A DNA stretch of 39,138 bases, taken from Caldilineaceae bacterium. Lineage in GTDB: Bacteria > Chloroflexota > Anaerolineae > Caldilineales > Caldilineaceae. Each line of letters opens with the position of its first letter. The first letter of the stretch is position 1. Positions 7,089 to 17,858 of this stretch are shown here, one piece after another. Position numbers and translations under genes: made by a program. The stretch lies in the NCBI GenBank assembly GCA_026989655.1, contig JALSIX010000145.1:1-39138 (forward strand), given 5' to 3'. The notes under the pieces were generated by a model that saw only the letters and a list, made by a program, of their open reading frames with translations, was not told the DNA's origin and ran no database searches.

Positions 7089-8416
7089 AGGGCCGCGAAG
7101 ACCTCCTCCAGTCCGGGGACCGGCAATTCCGGCAGCGGATAGATGGGCGACGGCTCTGGAAGCGGGGGCAGCGGCGGAGGACAGGGGGCCCCGGCCGCCA
7201 CGGTGGTCGGCTCGGTGAGCCATGCCCGGAGCTGGGCCACGTTCCGGCGCACGTCGAACTCCCGCTCTGCCTTGGCCCGGGCCGCGGTGCCCATGGCCTG
7301 GCGGCGGGCTGGATCGGTGAGGAGCTGGGCCAGGGCCTGGGCCAGGGCCGACACGTCTCCCGGTGGGACCAGCAGACCGTTCTGGTCGTGGTCGATGATC
7401 TCTGGGACGCCGGTCAGCTCTGTGGAGACCGGAGGCAGGCCGGTGGCCATGGCCTCCAGGAGCACCGTGGGCAGACCGTCCCGGTTGCCGTCCTGGCCCA
7501 CGACGCAGGGCAGGGCAAAGACGGCGGCCTGGCGGTAGGCCCTCAGCACCTGTTCCTGGGGGCGGGGTCCCAGGAGCTTCACCCGGTGGGACAGGCCCAA
7601 CGCCTGGATCTGTGCGGTGAGCCGGGGTTCCAGGGGCCCTTTGCCGATGATCTGGCAGTGGAACTTCACCCCTTGCTGGGCCAGGATCCCGCAGGCCCGG
7701 ATCAGGTCGCTGAAGCCCTTCTTCTCCACCAGCCGGCCTACGGCCAGGATGCGGTTGTCCCGGCGCTGTCCTGGGCGGCCTGGGCGGAAGCGGCCCAGGT
7801 CGATGCCGTTGTAGAGGCAGTGGATGGTGCCCGGGCCGTCCTGGATGAGCTCCTGCAGATAGCGCTGGTTGAAGCGGCTCACCGTGACCACGAAGCGGGC
7901 CTCGCGGATCTTGGCCCGGAGGCTCTCCGGGCGCACGCTCTCGTGGAAGATGTCCTTGGCGTGGGCGGTGAAGCTGTAGGGCATGCCGATGAGATGGTAG
8001 ATCAGGTTGGCCACCCGGGTGGCGCTGGACGCGAAGTGGGCGTGGACCCCATCCACCGGATGACGAAGCAGATGGGCCGCGATGTAGCCGGCCTGGAGGA
8101 ACCGCTTCACCGCGTAGAGATGCCCCTTGGCCTCCACCTGGGCCCGGACCCGGCGGTAGCGCTCGGGGACCGCAGCCTGGAGGAGCCGATGCGCGGCCAG
8201 GATCCGGTCCGGCTCCATCTGGGGATACTGGGGCACGTAGACCACGTTGGCCCGGACCCGGGCCAGACGGGCATGGAAGCGGCCATCGTCCGGCTTGCGC
8301 AGGGAGTAGATGCGCACGTCCACACCTTGGCGTTCCAGTTCCAGGATCTCGTTGACGATGAAGGTCTCGGAGAACCGGGGGTACATCTTCAGGATATAGG
8401 CGATCCGGGGCCTCAT
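7085..8416 (-). CDS. GT4-family glycosyltransferase
   Basis: This 443-residue GT-B enzyme opens with IAYILKMYPRFSETFIVNEI, the typical start of exopolysaccharide GT4 enzymes (WcaL/AmsK-like). The donor-binding half carries ILAVGRLVEKKGFSDLI and RDGLPTVLLEAMATGLP; in the latter the first Glu of the EX7E motif is replaced by Asp. It should transfer a sugar from a nucleotide donor to a lipid-linked oligosaccharide at the cytoplasmic face. The C-terminal 45 residues are Pro-rich and outside the fold. Start and stop both overlap the neighbouring genes as ATGA, so three transferases are translated as a chain. The frame runs open far upstream, but that part lies antiparallel in register over the previous gene and is not protein-like. 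Confidence 0.92.
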   Translation of the reverse strand: MRPRIAYILKMYPRFSETFIVNEILELERQGVDVRIYSLRKPDDGRFHARLARVRANVVYVPQYPQMEPDRILAAHRLLQAAVPERYRRVRAQVEAKGHLYAVKRFLQAGYIAAHLLRHPVDGVHAHFASSATRVANLIYHLIGMPYSFTAHAKDIFHESVRPESLRAKIREARFVVTVSRFNQRYLQELIQDGPGTIHCLYNGIDLGRFRPGRPGQRRDNRILAVGRLVEKKGFSDLIRACGILAQQGVKFHCQIIGKGPLEPRLTAQIQALGLSHRVKLLGPRPQEQVLRAYRQAAVFALPCVVGQDGNRDGLPTVLLEAMATGLPPVSTELTGVPEIIDHDQNGLLVPPGDVSALAQALAQLLTDPARRQAMGTAARAKAEREFDVRRNVAQLRAWLTEPTTVAAGAPCPPPLPPLPEPSPIYPLPELPVPGLEEVFAAL

Positions 8417-9663
8417 GAGAACAGCTCCTTGTGGATGGCGACGAAGGAGAGACGTCCATGGGGGTTGCGGGAGGAGCCGGGCCGCGGCCGCTCCTTCCCA
8501 GCCAGCAGTTCCTGGATGGCCTGGCTGACCCGTTCCAGACCGTCCAGGGCAAGGGTGATCTGGGGTGGGGGGGCGGCCAGCCCCTGTTGGATGGCCTGGA
8601 GGAGGCGGGCAGGTGTCAGCTCGTTGGGCAGCAGGACCTGGGCCAGGCCCTGATGGGCCATCTGGTGGGCCCGAATGCGCTGCTCGGCCCGCACCCGGTC
8701 TCGGGGGATCAGGAGGGCCCGTTTGCCCAGGGAGAGGAGCTCGCAGACGGTGTTGTAGCCGGCCATGCTCACCACCAGATCCGCGGCCTGGATGTAGCTG
8801 GGCAGGTCCGGGGTGAACTCCAGCAGGGTGACGTCCTGGCCCTGGGCCATGCGTTGGAGGAGCATCCTCTTTCCCCGAGGCATGAGGGGCCCGGTGACCA
8901 CCAGGCTGTGGAAGGCGGGACGATGGGCCGCCACCATCTCCAGATGGGTGCGCAGGATGGGGTAGCCGTCTCCGCCGCCGCCCACGGTGACCACCACCAG
9001 CGGGCGCTCTGCGACGTCCAGTTCCCGGCGCACCGTGTCCGGAGGGCGGGGCCGGGAACTCCGGCGCAGGTAGCCGCACTCCAGGAGCTTCTGAACGGCC
9101 CGGGGTGTCATCCCGTAGGCGGTCACGGGATCGAAGAGCCGTCGCTCTCCGTAGAGGAGGATGGCGTCGTAGACCTGTTCCAGGAGCTGGAGGGTCCCGT
9201 TCGCGTGCCACTCTGCCCGGGTGACCTCTGGGCTGTCCTCGATGTCCCGCATGCCCAGGACGAGCCGGGTCTCGGGGGACCAGGTGCGCAGGTAGCGGAG
9301 GGTGGGGAGCAGCTCTCCGTGGACACCGCCGGCCACCTTGTCCACCAACACCAGGTGGGGCCGGAAGTTCAGGGTGGCCTGGAGGATCATCTGTTCCCGC
9401 CAGCGGAGGGTCTGGCGCAGGGTCAAGGGCAGGGAGCGGGCCTTGTACTGGCCGCTGGAGCGCTTGCTCAGGGCCGGCAGCTTGACCATGTCCAGCCGGG
9501 GGGGCAGGCTGAAGGCCCCGGCCACCATGGACCCGGTGACGAGCAGTTGATGCAGGTCTGGGATGTCGCGGGCCAGTTGGTGGGCCACGCTCAGGCTTCG
9601 GCGCAGGTGGCCCAGGCCATAGGTGTCGTGGGAGTAGAGCAGGATGCGTGGTTTGGTGGTCAT
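8413..9663 (-). CDS. MurG/GT28-like predicted glycosyltransferase
   Basis: This 416-residue protein begins with RILLYSHDTYGLGHLRRSL, the nucleotide-sugar transferase start of the COG4671-like family. It ends with a GT28-type C-terminal domain: a glycine-rich loop (VVVTVGGGGDGYPIL), VVTGPLMPRGKR, and the donor-site segment LVVSMAGYNTVCELLSLGKR. Family members use UDP-sugars; the product here is unknown. It is the first gene of the minus-strand glycan operon and overlaps the next gene by four bases. No clear Shine-Dalgarno precedes the ATG at 9663. An inverted repeat at 9759-9791 in the A/T-richer leader could be its operator. Confidence 0.85.
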   Translation of the reverse strand: MTTKPRILLYSHDTYGLGHLRRSLSVAHQLARDIPDLHQLLVTGSMVAGAFSLPPRLDMVKLPALSKRSSGQYKARSLPLTLRQTLRWREQMILQATLNFRPHLVLVDKVAGGVHGELLPTLRYLRTWSPETRLVLGMRDIEDSPEVTRAEWHANGTLQLLEQVYDAILLYGERRLFDPVTAYGMTPRAVQKLLECGYLRRSSRPRPPDTVRRELDVAERPLVVVTVGGGGDGYPILRTHLEMVAAHRPAFHSLVVTGPLMPRGKRMLLQRMAQGQDVTLLEFTPDLPSYIQAADLVVSMAGYNTVCELLSLGKRALLIPRDRVRAEQRIRAHQMAHQGLAQVLLPNELTPARLLQAIQQGLAAPPPQITLALDGLERVSQAIQELLAGKERPRPGSSRNPHGRLSFVAIHKELFS

Positions 9664-13800: not shown

Positions 13801-14103
13801 CGCTGTCTTTCCCCGTGCATCATCGTGGCTATACTCGTGGTTATACCGGCTCCGGGTCGGGGGATCCCCAGGGGGCCGGGTCTGCCGGATTTGGCCGTTC
13901 GGGCGAAACGGGGTAAGGTACAGCGATCCGGGCCGCTCGCGCTTTCACCCTGCACAGAGCGGGCCCCTGTCCGCCGCCCAGCCCCGAGATCACCGATGAT
14001 TATGCCAGAGTGGGCCTCGGCGGGCTTCCCGAAGATCATCGAATTGGGGCGGATCCACCCTGAGCCCCTGATCCCATCTGTCAGAGCCCATCGGAGGTGG
14101 CCG
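13801..14103. other. Divergent region between sensor kinase and uridylyltransferase
   Basis: These 303 bases carry the starts of two divergent genes. A/T-rich hexamers such as TATAAC (minus, 13840-13845) occur, but without a partner -35. On the plus strand TTGGCC (13891-13896) and TAAGGT (13914-13919) have a 17-base spacer, a weak promoter candidate for the uridylyltransferase. No coding frame here is convincing. Confidence 0.4.
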
Positions 14104-15582
14104 ATGACGTCCCCAGCTCCATCCAATGACGTGGAACGGGCCCCGCGCCGCTTTGCCCCCTTCCAGGACCGTATGCAGGCGGCCGGCATCCCCTCGCGGG
14201 TCATCGAGAGCTTCCGGCGCCAGTACACCCAGTTGCTGCAGGGAGAGACCGGCTACATCCCCGAGAGCCAGGCCCTTCCCCTGGACCACCTGCCCTGCCT
14301 GGAGGCCCTGGAGAAGAGCTACGCTTCCGCCGGCGAGGAGGCCCTGGGGCGGCTGGTGGTGATCAAGCTCAACGGCGGCCTGGGCACCAGCATGGGCATG
14401 GCCGGCCCCAAGTCCCTCATCCCGGTGAAGCAGGGCCTCTCCTTCCTGGACATCGCCGTACGCCAGATCCTGGCCCTGCGACGCCACTGGAACGTGCGGC
14501 TGCCCCTGGTCTTCATGGACAGCTTCCACACCCGTGGGGCCACGTTGGAGGCCCTGGCCGCCTACCCCGAACTGGTCGCGGACCTGCCCCTGGACTTCCT
14601 CCAGCATCGGGTGCCCAAGATCTGGGCCCGAGATCTCACCCCCGTGGAATGGCCCGAGGATCCGGAGAAGGCGTGGGCTCCCCCCGGACACGGCGACATC
14701 TACCTGGCCCTCTATACCTCGGGCATGCTCCAGCAGATGCTGGACGCGGGCTACGAATATGCCTTTGTCAGTAATATCGACAACCTGTGTGCCACTGTGG
14801 ACATGGAGATCCTGGGCTACATGGCCGAGAAGGAGATCCCCTTCCTGATGGAGGCCACCCGGCGAACCCCCGCGGACCGCAAGGGAGGCCACCTGGCCCG
14901 CCGCGCCGACGGCTCCCTGCTCCTCCGGGAGATCGCCCAGTGCCCTCCCGAGGAGCAGGAGCGGTTCCAGGACATCCAGCGCTATCGCTACTTCAACACG
15001 AACAACCTGTGGGTCCACCTGCCCAGCTTGGCCCGGCTCCTGGAAGCCCACGAGGGCATCCTGCCGCTTCCCCTGATCCGGAACCAGAAGCCCGTGGACC
15101 CCACCCGGCCGAATACCCCACAGGTCTACCAACTGGAGACGGCCATGGGCCATGCCGTGGGCCTCTTCCCCGGTGCCCAGGCCCTGGAGGTACCTCGACG
15201 TCGTTTCCGGCCGGTGAAACGCACCGACGACCTGCTGGCCCTGTGGTCCGACGCGTACGTGTTGACCCCGGACTATCGGGTGGTCCTGGATCCTCGTCGA
15301 GAAACCCTGGACCCACCCCTGGGCGACCCGTTGGTCCGGCTGGACGAGGGCCACTATCGGTTATTCCGGGAGTTTCAGGCCCGCTTCTCCCACGGAGCCC
15401 CCTCCATGGTGTGGTGTCGCAGCCTGGTGGTGGAGGGGGATGTCTACTTCGGCCAGGCGATCGTCCTGCGGGGAGATGTACACATCGTCCATGCGGGACC
15501 CGAGCCGCTACGGCTGCCCGATGGCGCGGTGTTGGAGGGGTTCTGCTCGGGGACGAGGGTGGGCAGCGTCCCGGAACGCTAG
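14104..15582 (+). CDS. UTP--glucose-1-phosphate uridylyltransferase (eukaryote-type UDPGP family)
   Basis: This 492-residue protein makes UDP-glucose from UTP and glucose-1-phosphate. It belongs to the UDPGP family (eukaryotic UGP-like), not the GalU family, as shown by the nucleotide-binding loop KLNGGLGTSMGMAGPKS and the sugar-site segments VFMDSFHT, FVSNIDNLCATVD and RYFNTNNLWVHL. A C-terminal left-handed helix-like tail (VEGDVYFGQAIVLRGDVHI) completes the enzyme. The ATG at 14104 has GGAGGTG at 14093-14099 with a short spacer; the frame is open upstream to 13825 but that part is not conserved-looking. The product would feed the neighbouring glycosyltransferases and the priming phosphotransferase. 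Its TAG overlaps the stop codon of the convergent FemAB gene in CTAG. Confidence 0.93.
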   Translation: MTSPAPSNDVERAPRRFAPFQDRMQAAGIPSRVIESFRRQYTQLLQGETGYIPESQALPLDHLPCLEALEKSYASAGEEALGRLVVIKLNGGLGTSMGMAGPKSLIPVKQGLSFLDIAVRQILALRRHWNVRLPLVFMDSFHTRGATLEALAAYPELVADLPLDFLQHRVPKIWARDLTPVEWPEDPEKAWAPPGHGDIYLALYTSGMLQQMLDAGYEYAFVSNIDNLCATVDMEILGYMAEKEIPFLMEATRRTPADRKGGHLARRADGSLLLREIAQCPPEEQERFQDIQRYRYFNTNNLWVHLPSLARLLEAHEGILPLPLIRNQKPVDPTRPNTPQVYQLETAMGHAVGLFPGAQALEVPRRRFRPVKRTDDLLALWSDAYVLTPDYRVVLDPRRETLDPPLGDPLVRLDEGHYRLFREFQARFSHGAPSMVWCRSLVVEGDVYFGQAIVLRGDVHIVHAGPEPLRLPDGAVLEGFCSGTRVGSVPER

Positions 15583-17858
15583 CCGGTCCACCCGGCCCGC
15601 AGGAGACGGCGCAGCCAGGGCATGGCCCCGTGGTACAGACGCCAGGCCACCTTGGGCCAGGGAGACCAGTCCCAGGGCCCGATGTGGACGCGCAGCCGGG
15701 CGCCGAACCCCTGTTTGAAGCGCCACACGCCCTGGAGGGGATCCTCGGGATCGTCCACGCAGGTGGGCGCGCCCCACCAGTCGTAGATCCGGGCGCCCTG
15801 GGCCTTGGCCCAGCGCAGGGCCTCCCACTGGAGGCGGTGGTTCGGCATGTCTCGCCGGCGTCGTCGGCTGCTGGCCCCGTAGAAGTACCAGACCCGATCC
15901 CGGAAACGCAGGAGGAAGATCCCGGCCACCGGTGCCGACTCCTGTGGGTGCTCGGCCAGCAACAGGGCACCGCCCGCGGGCGTGTTCGGGTCCTCCTGGG
16001 CGGCCAGGAAGGTGCGCCATACCGCCTGGTAGTAGGCCAGGGGGCGTACCAGGAACCCATCCCGGCGGCCGGTCTCCTGGTAGAGCCGGTAGAAGGCCTC
16101 CAGGTCCTGGAGGCCTCCCTGCCGGACCCGGATCCCCCGGCGTGCGGCCAGGCGGATGTTGTAGCGCCATTTGGGCTTCATGGCCGCCAACAGCGTCTCC
16201 TCGGTTCCGTGGAGCTCGGTGATCCCGGTGTTCCGGAACTGGATGGCCTCGGGGCTCGGGAGCCAGCCCCGTTCCTGAAGCACGGCCACCAGGGCCTGCC
16301 CCGGCACGGTGTCCTCCTCCACATCGGGATCGATCTTGACGAAAAGGGCTCCCAGGGCCCGGGTTCGCTGTTCGATGGCCGCCAGCACGGCCGTGACGTG
16401 ATCGGGGTTTGACCAGTCCACCACCGGCCCTTTGGGCACGTATGCGATCCGCAGGGGCACCCGTCCCAGGGGCTGGCGCCACAGGAGCTGGAACGCGGCC
16501 ATGGGCACGCCATGGGTCTCCTGGAGCACCCAACGTTCCGCCGACCACCCTGCCTGGGCCTTGACCGCTCCCCACTCCCAGCTCTGGAGCACGTGGGGCT
16601 CGGGGAGCTGGGCCAAGGCCTCGTGCCAGGTGGTGGCCGTGGTCGCCGGGTGGAGCTTCCGGCCCCCGGAGGGGTGGCCCTGCTGGCCTCGGATGTGGGC
16701 CGGGTCTGTCGGGGCTCGAAGGTGGGACCGCAGCCGGGCCACGGCCTGGAGCGCGTGGGGACGTGCCTGCCATGCCAGGCGGTACAGCCGATGTCGGAGG
16801 GGGCGGTAGGGCTGTTCCCAGGCGCCCACCGTGCGCACCACGTGGCCGCCGAATCCCTGTTTGAACCGGTAGACTCCCCAGAGATCGCCCTGGGGCAGCC
16901 GGGCCAGGTCCACCGGCAGCCGGGCCACGGCCACCGGCTCACCGGCCTCCAGCCCCAGGGGCCGGGCCAGTTGGCCCAGAGGATCGGGGATGCCCCACAG
17001 GTCGTAGACCTGTGCGCCCCGGGCCCGGGCCCAGCGCATGGCCTCCCACTGGAGCAGATGGTTGGGCATGCGTCGGCGTTCCCGGTTCCCGCTCGCGCCC
17101 CAGAGGTACCAGGCCGTCGTGCCCAGGTGGAGCACCGCGATGGCGGCCAGGGGTGTCCCCTGGTGTTCGGCCAGGAGGAAGATCCCCTGTTGGGGCACGA
17201 ACAGGTGAAAGGCCAGGCGGTAGTACTCTGGGCTGTGGACCGGGAACCCGTCTCGGGCGCCGGTCTCCTCCATCAGGGCCTGGAACGTGGGGAGGTCCTG
17301 GGCCGTCATGGGCCGCACGGTCACTCCCCGCCGTTGGGCCAGGCGGATGTTGTAACGCCACTTTCCCTTCATGCGGGCCAGCAGCGCGGCCTCGTCTCCC
17401 TGCAGCTCCAGATGGAGAGTGGTCCGGGGCTGGATCGTGTGGGGGCTGGGTTGGAAGCCGTAGCCTGCCAGCAGCCTCCGGTGCTCGGCCGTGTCCCGCA
17501 GTTCCGGCTCGATCTGGAGGAACGCGGCGCCGGATGCTCGGGCCAGATGGCCGATGGCCTCCAACAGGGCCTGGGTCAACGCCCGATCGTGCCAGTCGGT
17601 CAGGGGGCCTTTGGGCACGTAGGCCAGGGTGAGGCCTGGCAGCGAGCGCAGCAGCACCAGGGCGCCGGCCCGCAGGCCGCTGTCATCGGCCAGGCCCACG
17701 GTGTGGCTGCGCCACCCGAACCGGGACTTCAACACGCCCCAGCCATGGCTCTGGAGGATGTGGGCACGGGGATGCTGGGCCACAAAGGCATCCCAGGTGG
17801 AGGGAGGGATGTCGAAGACAGGAGACAGCGGGGACATGGATCTCGAACACGCTCCCAT
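15579..17858 (-). CDS. Double-length FemAB-like aminoacyltransferase (two fused GNAT-type units)
   Basis: The 759-residue product contains two complete FemAB/lipid II:glycine-transferase-like units in one frame, offset by about 389 residues. Matching blocks are ILQSHGWGVLK (34 on) and VLQSWEWGAVK (423 on), AYVPKGPLTDW and AYVPKGPVVDW, KWRYNIRLAQRRG and KWRYNIRLAARRG, LLQWEAMRWARARGA and RLQWEALRWAKAQGA, and YRFKQGFGG and WRFKQGFGA. Family members add amino acids from aminoacyl-tRNA to the peptidoglycan stem peptide, or modify surface glycans. The reaction here is not known. A linker of about 40 residues joins the units. The start is uncertain: ATG 17858 or 17837, with no clear ribosome-binding site. 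The frame stays open far upstream over the divergent glycosyltransferase but is not protein-like there. Confidence 0.9.
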   Translation of the reverse strand: MGACSRSMSPLSPVFDIPPSTWDAFVAQHPRAHILQSHGWGVLKSRFGWRSHTVGLADDSGLRAGALVLLRSLPGLTLAYVPKGPLTDWHDRALTQALLEAIGHLARASGAAFLQIEPELRDTAEHRRLLAGYGFQPSPHTIQPRTTLHLELQGDEAALLARMKGKWRYNIRLAQRRGVTVRPMTAQDLPTFQALMEETGARDGFPVHSPEYYRLAFHLFVPQQGIFLLAEHQGTPLAAIAVLHLGTTAWYLWGASGNRERRRMPNHLLQWEAMRWARARGAQVYDLWGIPDPLGQLARPLGLEAGEPVAVARLPVDLARLPQGDLWGVYRFKQGFGGHVVRTVGAWEQPYRPLRHRLYRLAWQARPHALQAVARLRSHLRAPTDPAHIRGQQGHPSGGRKLHPATTATTWHEALAQLPEPHVLQSWEWGAVKAQAGWSAERWVLQETHGVPMAAFQLLWRQPLGRVPLRIAYVPKGPVVDWSNPDHVTAVLAAIEQRTRALGALFVKIDPDVEEDTVPGQALVAVLQERGWLPSPEAIQFRNTGITELHGTEETLLAAMKPKWRYNIRLAARRGIRVRQGGLQDLEAFYRLYQETGRRDGFLVRPLAYYQAVWRTFLAAQEDPNTPAGGALLLAEHPQESAPVAGIFLLRFRDRVWYFYGASSRRRRRDMPNHRLQWEALRWAKAQGARIYDWWGAPTCVDDPEDPLQGVWRFKQGFGARLRVHIGPWDWSPWPKVAWRLYHGAMPWLRRLLRAGWTG

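What the first reader, a model, noticed from the sequence alone, without database searches (positions are those of the whole stretch)
15579..17858. Tandem FemAB fusion in one chain
Two full FemAB-like units repeat with an offset of about 389 residues and share long identical blocks. Known Fem enzymes have one unit each and work in sequence (FemX, FemA, FemB). A covalent pair could add two amino acids or act as an obligate dimer. Both units keep the same conserved blocks, so neither looks dead.
Basis: partly seen in the sequence, partly recalled or inferred. Interest (0 to 1): 0.6.

Follow-up and report, generated by a model that had tools for sequence, protein, structure and literature searches.

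The report
Fused two-step cell-wall bridge enzyme
In one bacterial family (Caldilineaceae, phylum Chloroflexota), two neighbouring genes for enzymes that hang amino acids on the cell-wall building block have been joined into one protein, a modest but clear variation on known Fem enzymes that probably adds two amino acids in turn.

Summary
On the minus strand, 15579-17858 encodes a 759-residue chain with two complete FemABX units, 41% identical, joined by a floppy linker of about 20 residues. It is the only FemAB protein found in the genome. Both units keep the catalytic Phe-Lys pair and the tRNA-binding helix, and both evolve under purifying selection in relatives.

The fusion arose once, in the Caldilineaceae stem, from a two-gene operon spread across the class. 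The N- and C-type units form two cleanly separate subfamilies with different fixed residues in the substrate pocket. N-type units often occur alone (31 genomes) and C-type units almost never (1 genome). One genus keeps a catalytically dead C unit in frame. The best reading is a sequential two-amino-acid bridge enzyme, with the N unit acting first and the C unit second. No reaction was measured.

New variant of a known kind; moderate interest.

The parts
15579..17858 (-). Fused tandem FemABX gene, 759 aa, ATG start, TAG stop
   Evidence: homologous fused ORFs in relatives, 29 distinct fused units counting the window
16716..17858 (-). Unit N (N-type FemABX unit, residues 1-381; two GNAT subdomains)
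   Evidence: N-type clade
16665..16715 (-). Inter-unit linker, residues 382-398, predicted disordered and variable in length
   Evidence: pLDDT below 50; alignment A4
15582..16664 (-). Unit C (C-type FemABX unit, residues 399-759; two GNAT subdomains)
   Evidence: C-type clade
17340..17369 (-). Unit N predicted tRNA-binding helix motif KGKWRYNIRL (residues 164-173)
   Evidence: aligns with FemA helix alpha6 (K180/R181); conserved
16149..16178 (-). Unit C predicted tRNA-binding helix motif KPKWRYNIRL (residues 561-570)
16860..16865 (-). Unit N catalytic F332-K333, equivalent of FemXWv F304-K305
   Evidence: equivalence by conserved FK motif; essential pair in FemXWv
15714..15719 (-). Unit C catalytic F714-K715, equivalent of FemXWv F304-K305
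17235..17237 (-). Unit N H208, where C units and solved Fem enzymes have Arg (FemXWv R211)
16044..16046 (-). Unit C R605, equivalent of FemXWv R211
13825..15582 (+). Convergent neighbour: UTP-glucose-1-phosphate uridylyltransferase-like gene (PF01704); both stop codons lie in one CTAG (15579-15582)
   Evidence: homologue present in 25 of the fetched loci

Best explanation
The gene encodes a bifunctional FemABX-type aminoacyl-tRNA-dependent transferase that builds a two-residue side branch on the peptidoglycan precursor (lipid II or UDP-MurNAc-pentapeptide) in two steps. [quoted passage not shown] The two enzymes were originally separate genes of one operon, and the fusion keeps them at equal dose and close together. 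Shown here: two complete units, intact catalytic residues, two distinct subfamilies, a single fusion from an operon, and dependence of C-type on N-type units across the class. Inferred: the substrate, the two-step chemistry, the order N then C, and the residue-3 diamino acid being ornithine or lysine rather than DAP. Unknown: which amino acids are added.
For: FemABX family and fold: PF02388 E 1e-92; top structural matches FemX of S. aureus and W. viridescens. Catalytic F/K, the K36 and Y215 equivalents and the tRNA helix are kept in both units (roles of F304, K305, K36, R211, Y215 from PMC4964394; helix alpha6 from PMC6428869). Both halves show dN/dS of about 0.1-0.2 in most relative pairs. 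N and C units separate completely, support 100, with fixed differences at three positions: E117/D510, P144/F541, H208/R605. Adjacent genes in the same order outside the family, several with a 4-base overlap. In 150 class genomes, N-only in 31 and C-only in 1, with the N-only state changing about 6 times on the tree. The one lineage with a dead unit (g16) lost C, not N. It is the sole FemAB protein found in the genome. MurE carries AEDPR in place of DNPR in most relatives examined, and L-ornithine peptidoglycan is usual in Chloroflexi (PMC3368417).
Against: No peptidoglycan chemistry is known to me for this organism, and none was found in the library for its family. Unit N lacks the Arg211 equivalent (His instead), which in FemXWv contributes to substrate binding, so its substrate contact may differ. 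The N-then-C order rests on presence and absence patterns, and the root of the N/C tree is not known. The MurE motif has not been shown to specify ornithine.
Confidence: 0.66

Rival explanations
1. The two units form an obligate pseudo-dimer: they add one amino acid, and the second unit mainly stabilises or positions the first.
For: FemXWv is a dimer in the crystal (PMC4964394). In genus g16 a C half without the tRNA helix or the catalytic pair is kept in frame in three species at dN/dS 0.35-0.43, confidence interval below 1, so a dead C half still seems useful.
Against: In the other relatives C keeps the catalytic residues and is as constrained as N. N-type units occur without any C in 31 genomes. 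The AF2 model shows a disordered linker and no confident fixed arrangement (pTM 0.59).
Confidence: 0.15
2. The two units act on different acceptors or in different pathways (for example one on lipid II and one on a lipid, exopolysaccharide or protein), and are fused only because they were neighbours.
For: Different fixed pocket residues in N and C. FemAB/GNAT relatives act on antibiotics and phosphatidylglycerol, and XrtA-linked FemAB proteins exist.
Against: Both units are most similar to peptidoglycan FemX/FemA in sequence and structure and match the XrtA-type model only far below its cut-off. C hardly ever occurs without N, as expected for one pathway.
Confidence: 0.12
3. Assembly or annotation artefact: two genes joined by a sequencing error.
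For: The source is a 150-contig assembly, and one relative, L072, shows a frameshift.
Against: Many independent relatives carry the same fusion with no stop, including chromosome-level records OY282381, OX638330 and OY282376.
Confidence: 0.01

Closest known systems
FemX of Weissella viridescens (PDB 1NE9, 4II9)
   Same: Double-GNAT unit without a coiled-coil arm; catalytic F304-K305; K36 and Y215 equivalents in both units
   Different: One unit per chain and one alanine added; the R211 equivalent is His in unit N
FemX, FemA and FemB of Staphylococcus aureus (PDB 6SNR, 1LRZ)
   Same: Successive aminoacyl-tRNA-dependent additions to lipid II by related enzymes; 6SNR is the best sequence and structure match
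   Different: Three separate proteins, FemA with a helical arm; five glycines in all. Here two units in one chain, without the arm
Split N-type and C-type FemAB gene pair of other Anaerolineae (e.g. L051-L070)
   Same: Orthologous units in the same order, adjacent on one strand
   Different: Two genes with their own stop and start codons

Membership tests
FemABX (Pfam PF02388) | Sequence match to the family over the curated cut-off | tested here: met
   311 bits against 24, four stretches, both units
FemABX (Pfam PF02388) | Double-GNAT unit fold like FemX/FemA | tested here: met
   AF2 pLDDT 90.6; FemX and FemA top Foldseek hits
FemABX (Pfam PF02388) | Catalytic Phe-Lys pair (FemXWv F304-K305) | tested here: met
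   F332-K333 and F714-K715
FemABX (Pfam PF02388) | Transfer of an amino acid from aminoacyl-tRNA to a peptidoglycan precursor | not testable with these tools
   Needs biochemistry
FemX equivalog (NCBIfam NF047883) | Score over the equivalog cut-off | tested here: not met
   123 bits against 500
FemX equivalog (NCBIfam NF047883) | Substrate residues K36, R211, Y215 | tested here: inconclusive
   Unit C has all three (K433, R605, Y609); unit N has K44 and Y212 but H208 in place of R211
XrtA/PEP-CTERM-associated FemAB (TIGR03019) | Score over the equivalog cut-off | tested here: not met
   113 bits against 260

The most novel reading that the evidence does not exclude
A single-chain, two-step bridge synthase in which the second unit also serves as a structural or regulatory partner, so that a lineage can lose the second chemistry yet must keep the dead unit: a pseudoenzyme half in the FemABX family, seen in genus g16.
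Probability: 0.25. Interest if true: 0.55.

Novelty: new variant of a known kind. Interest (0 to 1): 0.38.

Why it matters
FemABX enzymes set the length of the peptidoglycan bridge, and in the characterised systems each step is a separate protein. A natural fusion of two successive steps, with split ancestors, single-unit relatives and a lineage with a dead half, is a ready comparative set for asking what limits each Fem enzyme to its own step. It also predicts a two-residue bridge in a family whose wall chemistry appears unstudied.

Tried and rejected
1) Stop-codon readthrough in the split pairs: 25 of 46 pairs lie in one frame with a stop between, but the search ranks same-frame pairs higher, and the stops are mixed (10 TGA, 10 TAA, 5 TAG), so this is an ascertainment effect. 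2) L072 as a natural split: it is a frameshift inside the C unit with homology running on in the other frame. 3) L101, 791 aa, as another fusion: the upstream part has the look of a non-coding open frame. 5) Literature: no held paper has both FemAB and Chloroflexi; the Litorilinea envelope paper gives no wall chemistry in the parts read. 6) MurE motif as proof of ornithine: only suggestive. 7) An N-to-C order from closeness to FemX or FemA: both units match 6SNR about equally. Fusions in other phyla were not searched systematically.

Full report
What is there. The minus-strand frame 15579-17858 encodes 759 residues from an ATG at 17858 to a TAG at 15581-15579, without stops. Pfam FemAB matches at E 1e-92 in four stretches. 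The halves align over 359 residues at 41% identity, E 2e-76. Each half is a whole Fem enzyme, which itself holds two GNAT subdomains, so the chain carries four. The AlphaFold2 model has mean pLDDT 90.6 with a disordered stretch at 382-398 and pTM 0.59, meaning two well-folded units with no confident fixed arrangement. FemX of S. aureus and FemX of W. viridescens are the best structural matches. No other FemAB protein was found in the 4.09 Mb, 99% complete genome.

Is it real and how old. A set of 29 distinct fused proteins, the window's own and relatives that include chromosome-level records, carries the same fusion. In a tree of 180 units, N-type and C-type units separate completely (support 100). 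The fused N units fall in one clade and the fused C units in another (99 and 100); the only other members of these clades are the two g16 species and the frameshifted L072. In an even draw of 150 genomes of the class (at least 90% complete), 148 have an N-profile match. Among the rows listed, frames long enough to be this fusion occur only in the window's family; the one other frame above 700 aa, in G096 (apparently locus L101), is an open frame running upstream of a single unit. Outside the family the two units are adjacent genes in the same order, several with a 4-base overlap. So a two-gene operon was fused once, in the stem of the family that named records call Caldilineaceae.

Are both halves alive. 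FemXWv needs F304 and K305 for catalysis, and K36, R211 and Y215 for substrate binding (PMC4964394). The equivalents here are F332-K333 and F714-K715, K44 and K433, and Y212 and Y609. The tRNA-binding helix tested by mutation in FemA (PMC6428869) aligns with the nearly invariant KxKWRYNIR of both units. In close pairs of fused relatives both halves have dN/dS of about 0.1-0.2 in most cases. Neither half looks dead in the window's gene.

Are they the same enzyme twice. No. Three positions are fixed differently across the units, split and fused: E117 in N (88/88) and D510 in C (89/90); P144 in N (87/88) and F/Y at 541 in C (90/90); H208 in N (86/88) and R605 in C (90/90). The first and third correspond to D108 and R211 of FemXWv. 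This fits two different acceptors, as expected for two successive steps.

Which acts first. Among the 150 class genomes, those with one unit were examined. Thirty-one have only an N-type unit and one (G114) has only a C-type unit. On the N tree the N-only state changes about six times, at least four on well-supported branches, so C was apparently lost repeatedly. Loss of the second step leaves a working first step, while the reverse would leave an enzyme without substrate. This points to N first and C second. Some N-only calls could be gaps in draft assemblies, but whole families are consistent (f2, f36, f38, f40). Because the root is unknown, a few N-only lineages could pre-date the duplication.

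A natural experiment. In genus g16 (L019, L020, L120) the chain is still about 750-760 residues long, but the C half has lost the tRNA helix and the catalytic pair. It has no stops and few indels among three species, and dN/dS is 0.35-0.43 against 0.16-0.18 for its N half, with confidence intervals below 1. A model built on an alignment with intact relatives still gives a tandem-GNAT fold for this half (Z about 16 to 2wpx), though that alignment favours such a result. The dead half therefore seems to be retained for something other than aminoacyl transfer, or is decaying slowly. The dN/dS values use a simple counting method and are rough.

Mechanism and substrate. Both units fit aminoacyl-tRNA-dependent transfer to a peptidoglycan precursor. 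Chloroflexi peptidoglycan usually contains L-ornithine (PMC3368417), and MurE here has AEDPR in place of the DNPR motif that I recall for DAP enzymes, as do most relatives examined. Thermus and Deinobacterium control genomes also have PF02388 proteins, and Thermus thermophilus has an ornithine wall (PMC10836841). A branch of two amino acids on ornithine is the most likely product. Which amino acids they are cannot be read from the sequence.

Verdict. It is a family-wide fusion of two known-type enzymes: a new variant of a known kind. No held paper mentions FemAB together with Chloroflexi, so I found no earlier description, but the library is partial.

Noticed in passing
L019, L020, L120 (genus g16): C half of the fused protein is catalytically dead but retained in frame at dN/dS 0.35-0.43 in three species.
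   Followed up: yes
window 15579-15582: The fused gene and the convergent UDP-glucose pyrophosphorylase-like gene share one CTAG that holds both stop codons; a homologue of the neighbour lies beside the fusion in 25 fetched loci.
   Followed up: partly
L018, inter-unit linker of the fused ORF: The linker is lengthened by repeated motifs (IVNRKSKIVN-like) that look like a translated intergenic repeat.
   Followed up: no
G024, G010, G002 (same family): No match to the fused protein at E 0.001, although G024 is 96% and G010 93% complete; possible losses or assembly gaps.
   Followed up: no
G003:C608, G008:C777, G065:C10: Clusters of more distant FemAB-like genes (28-35% identity or weak profile scores) of unknown role.
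   Followed up: no
MurE loci L115, L124-L152: MurE in most relatives examined carries (A)EDPRTED where DAP-adding enzymes are remembered to have DNPR.
   Followed up: partly
window 8413-9663 (-): MurG-like protein that matches only the C-terminal glycosyltransferase-28 domain, far below the MurG cut-off.
   Followed up: no
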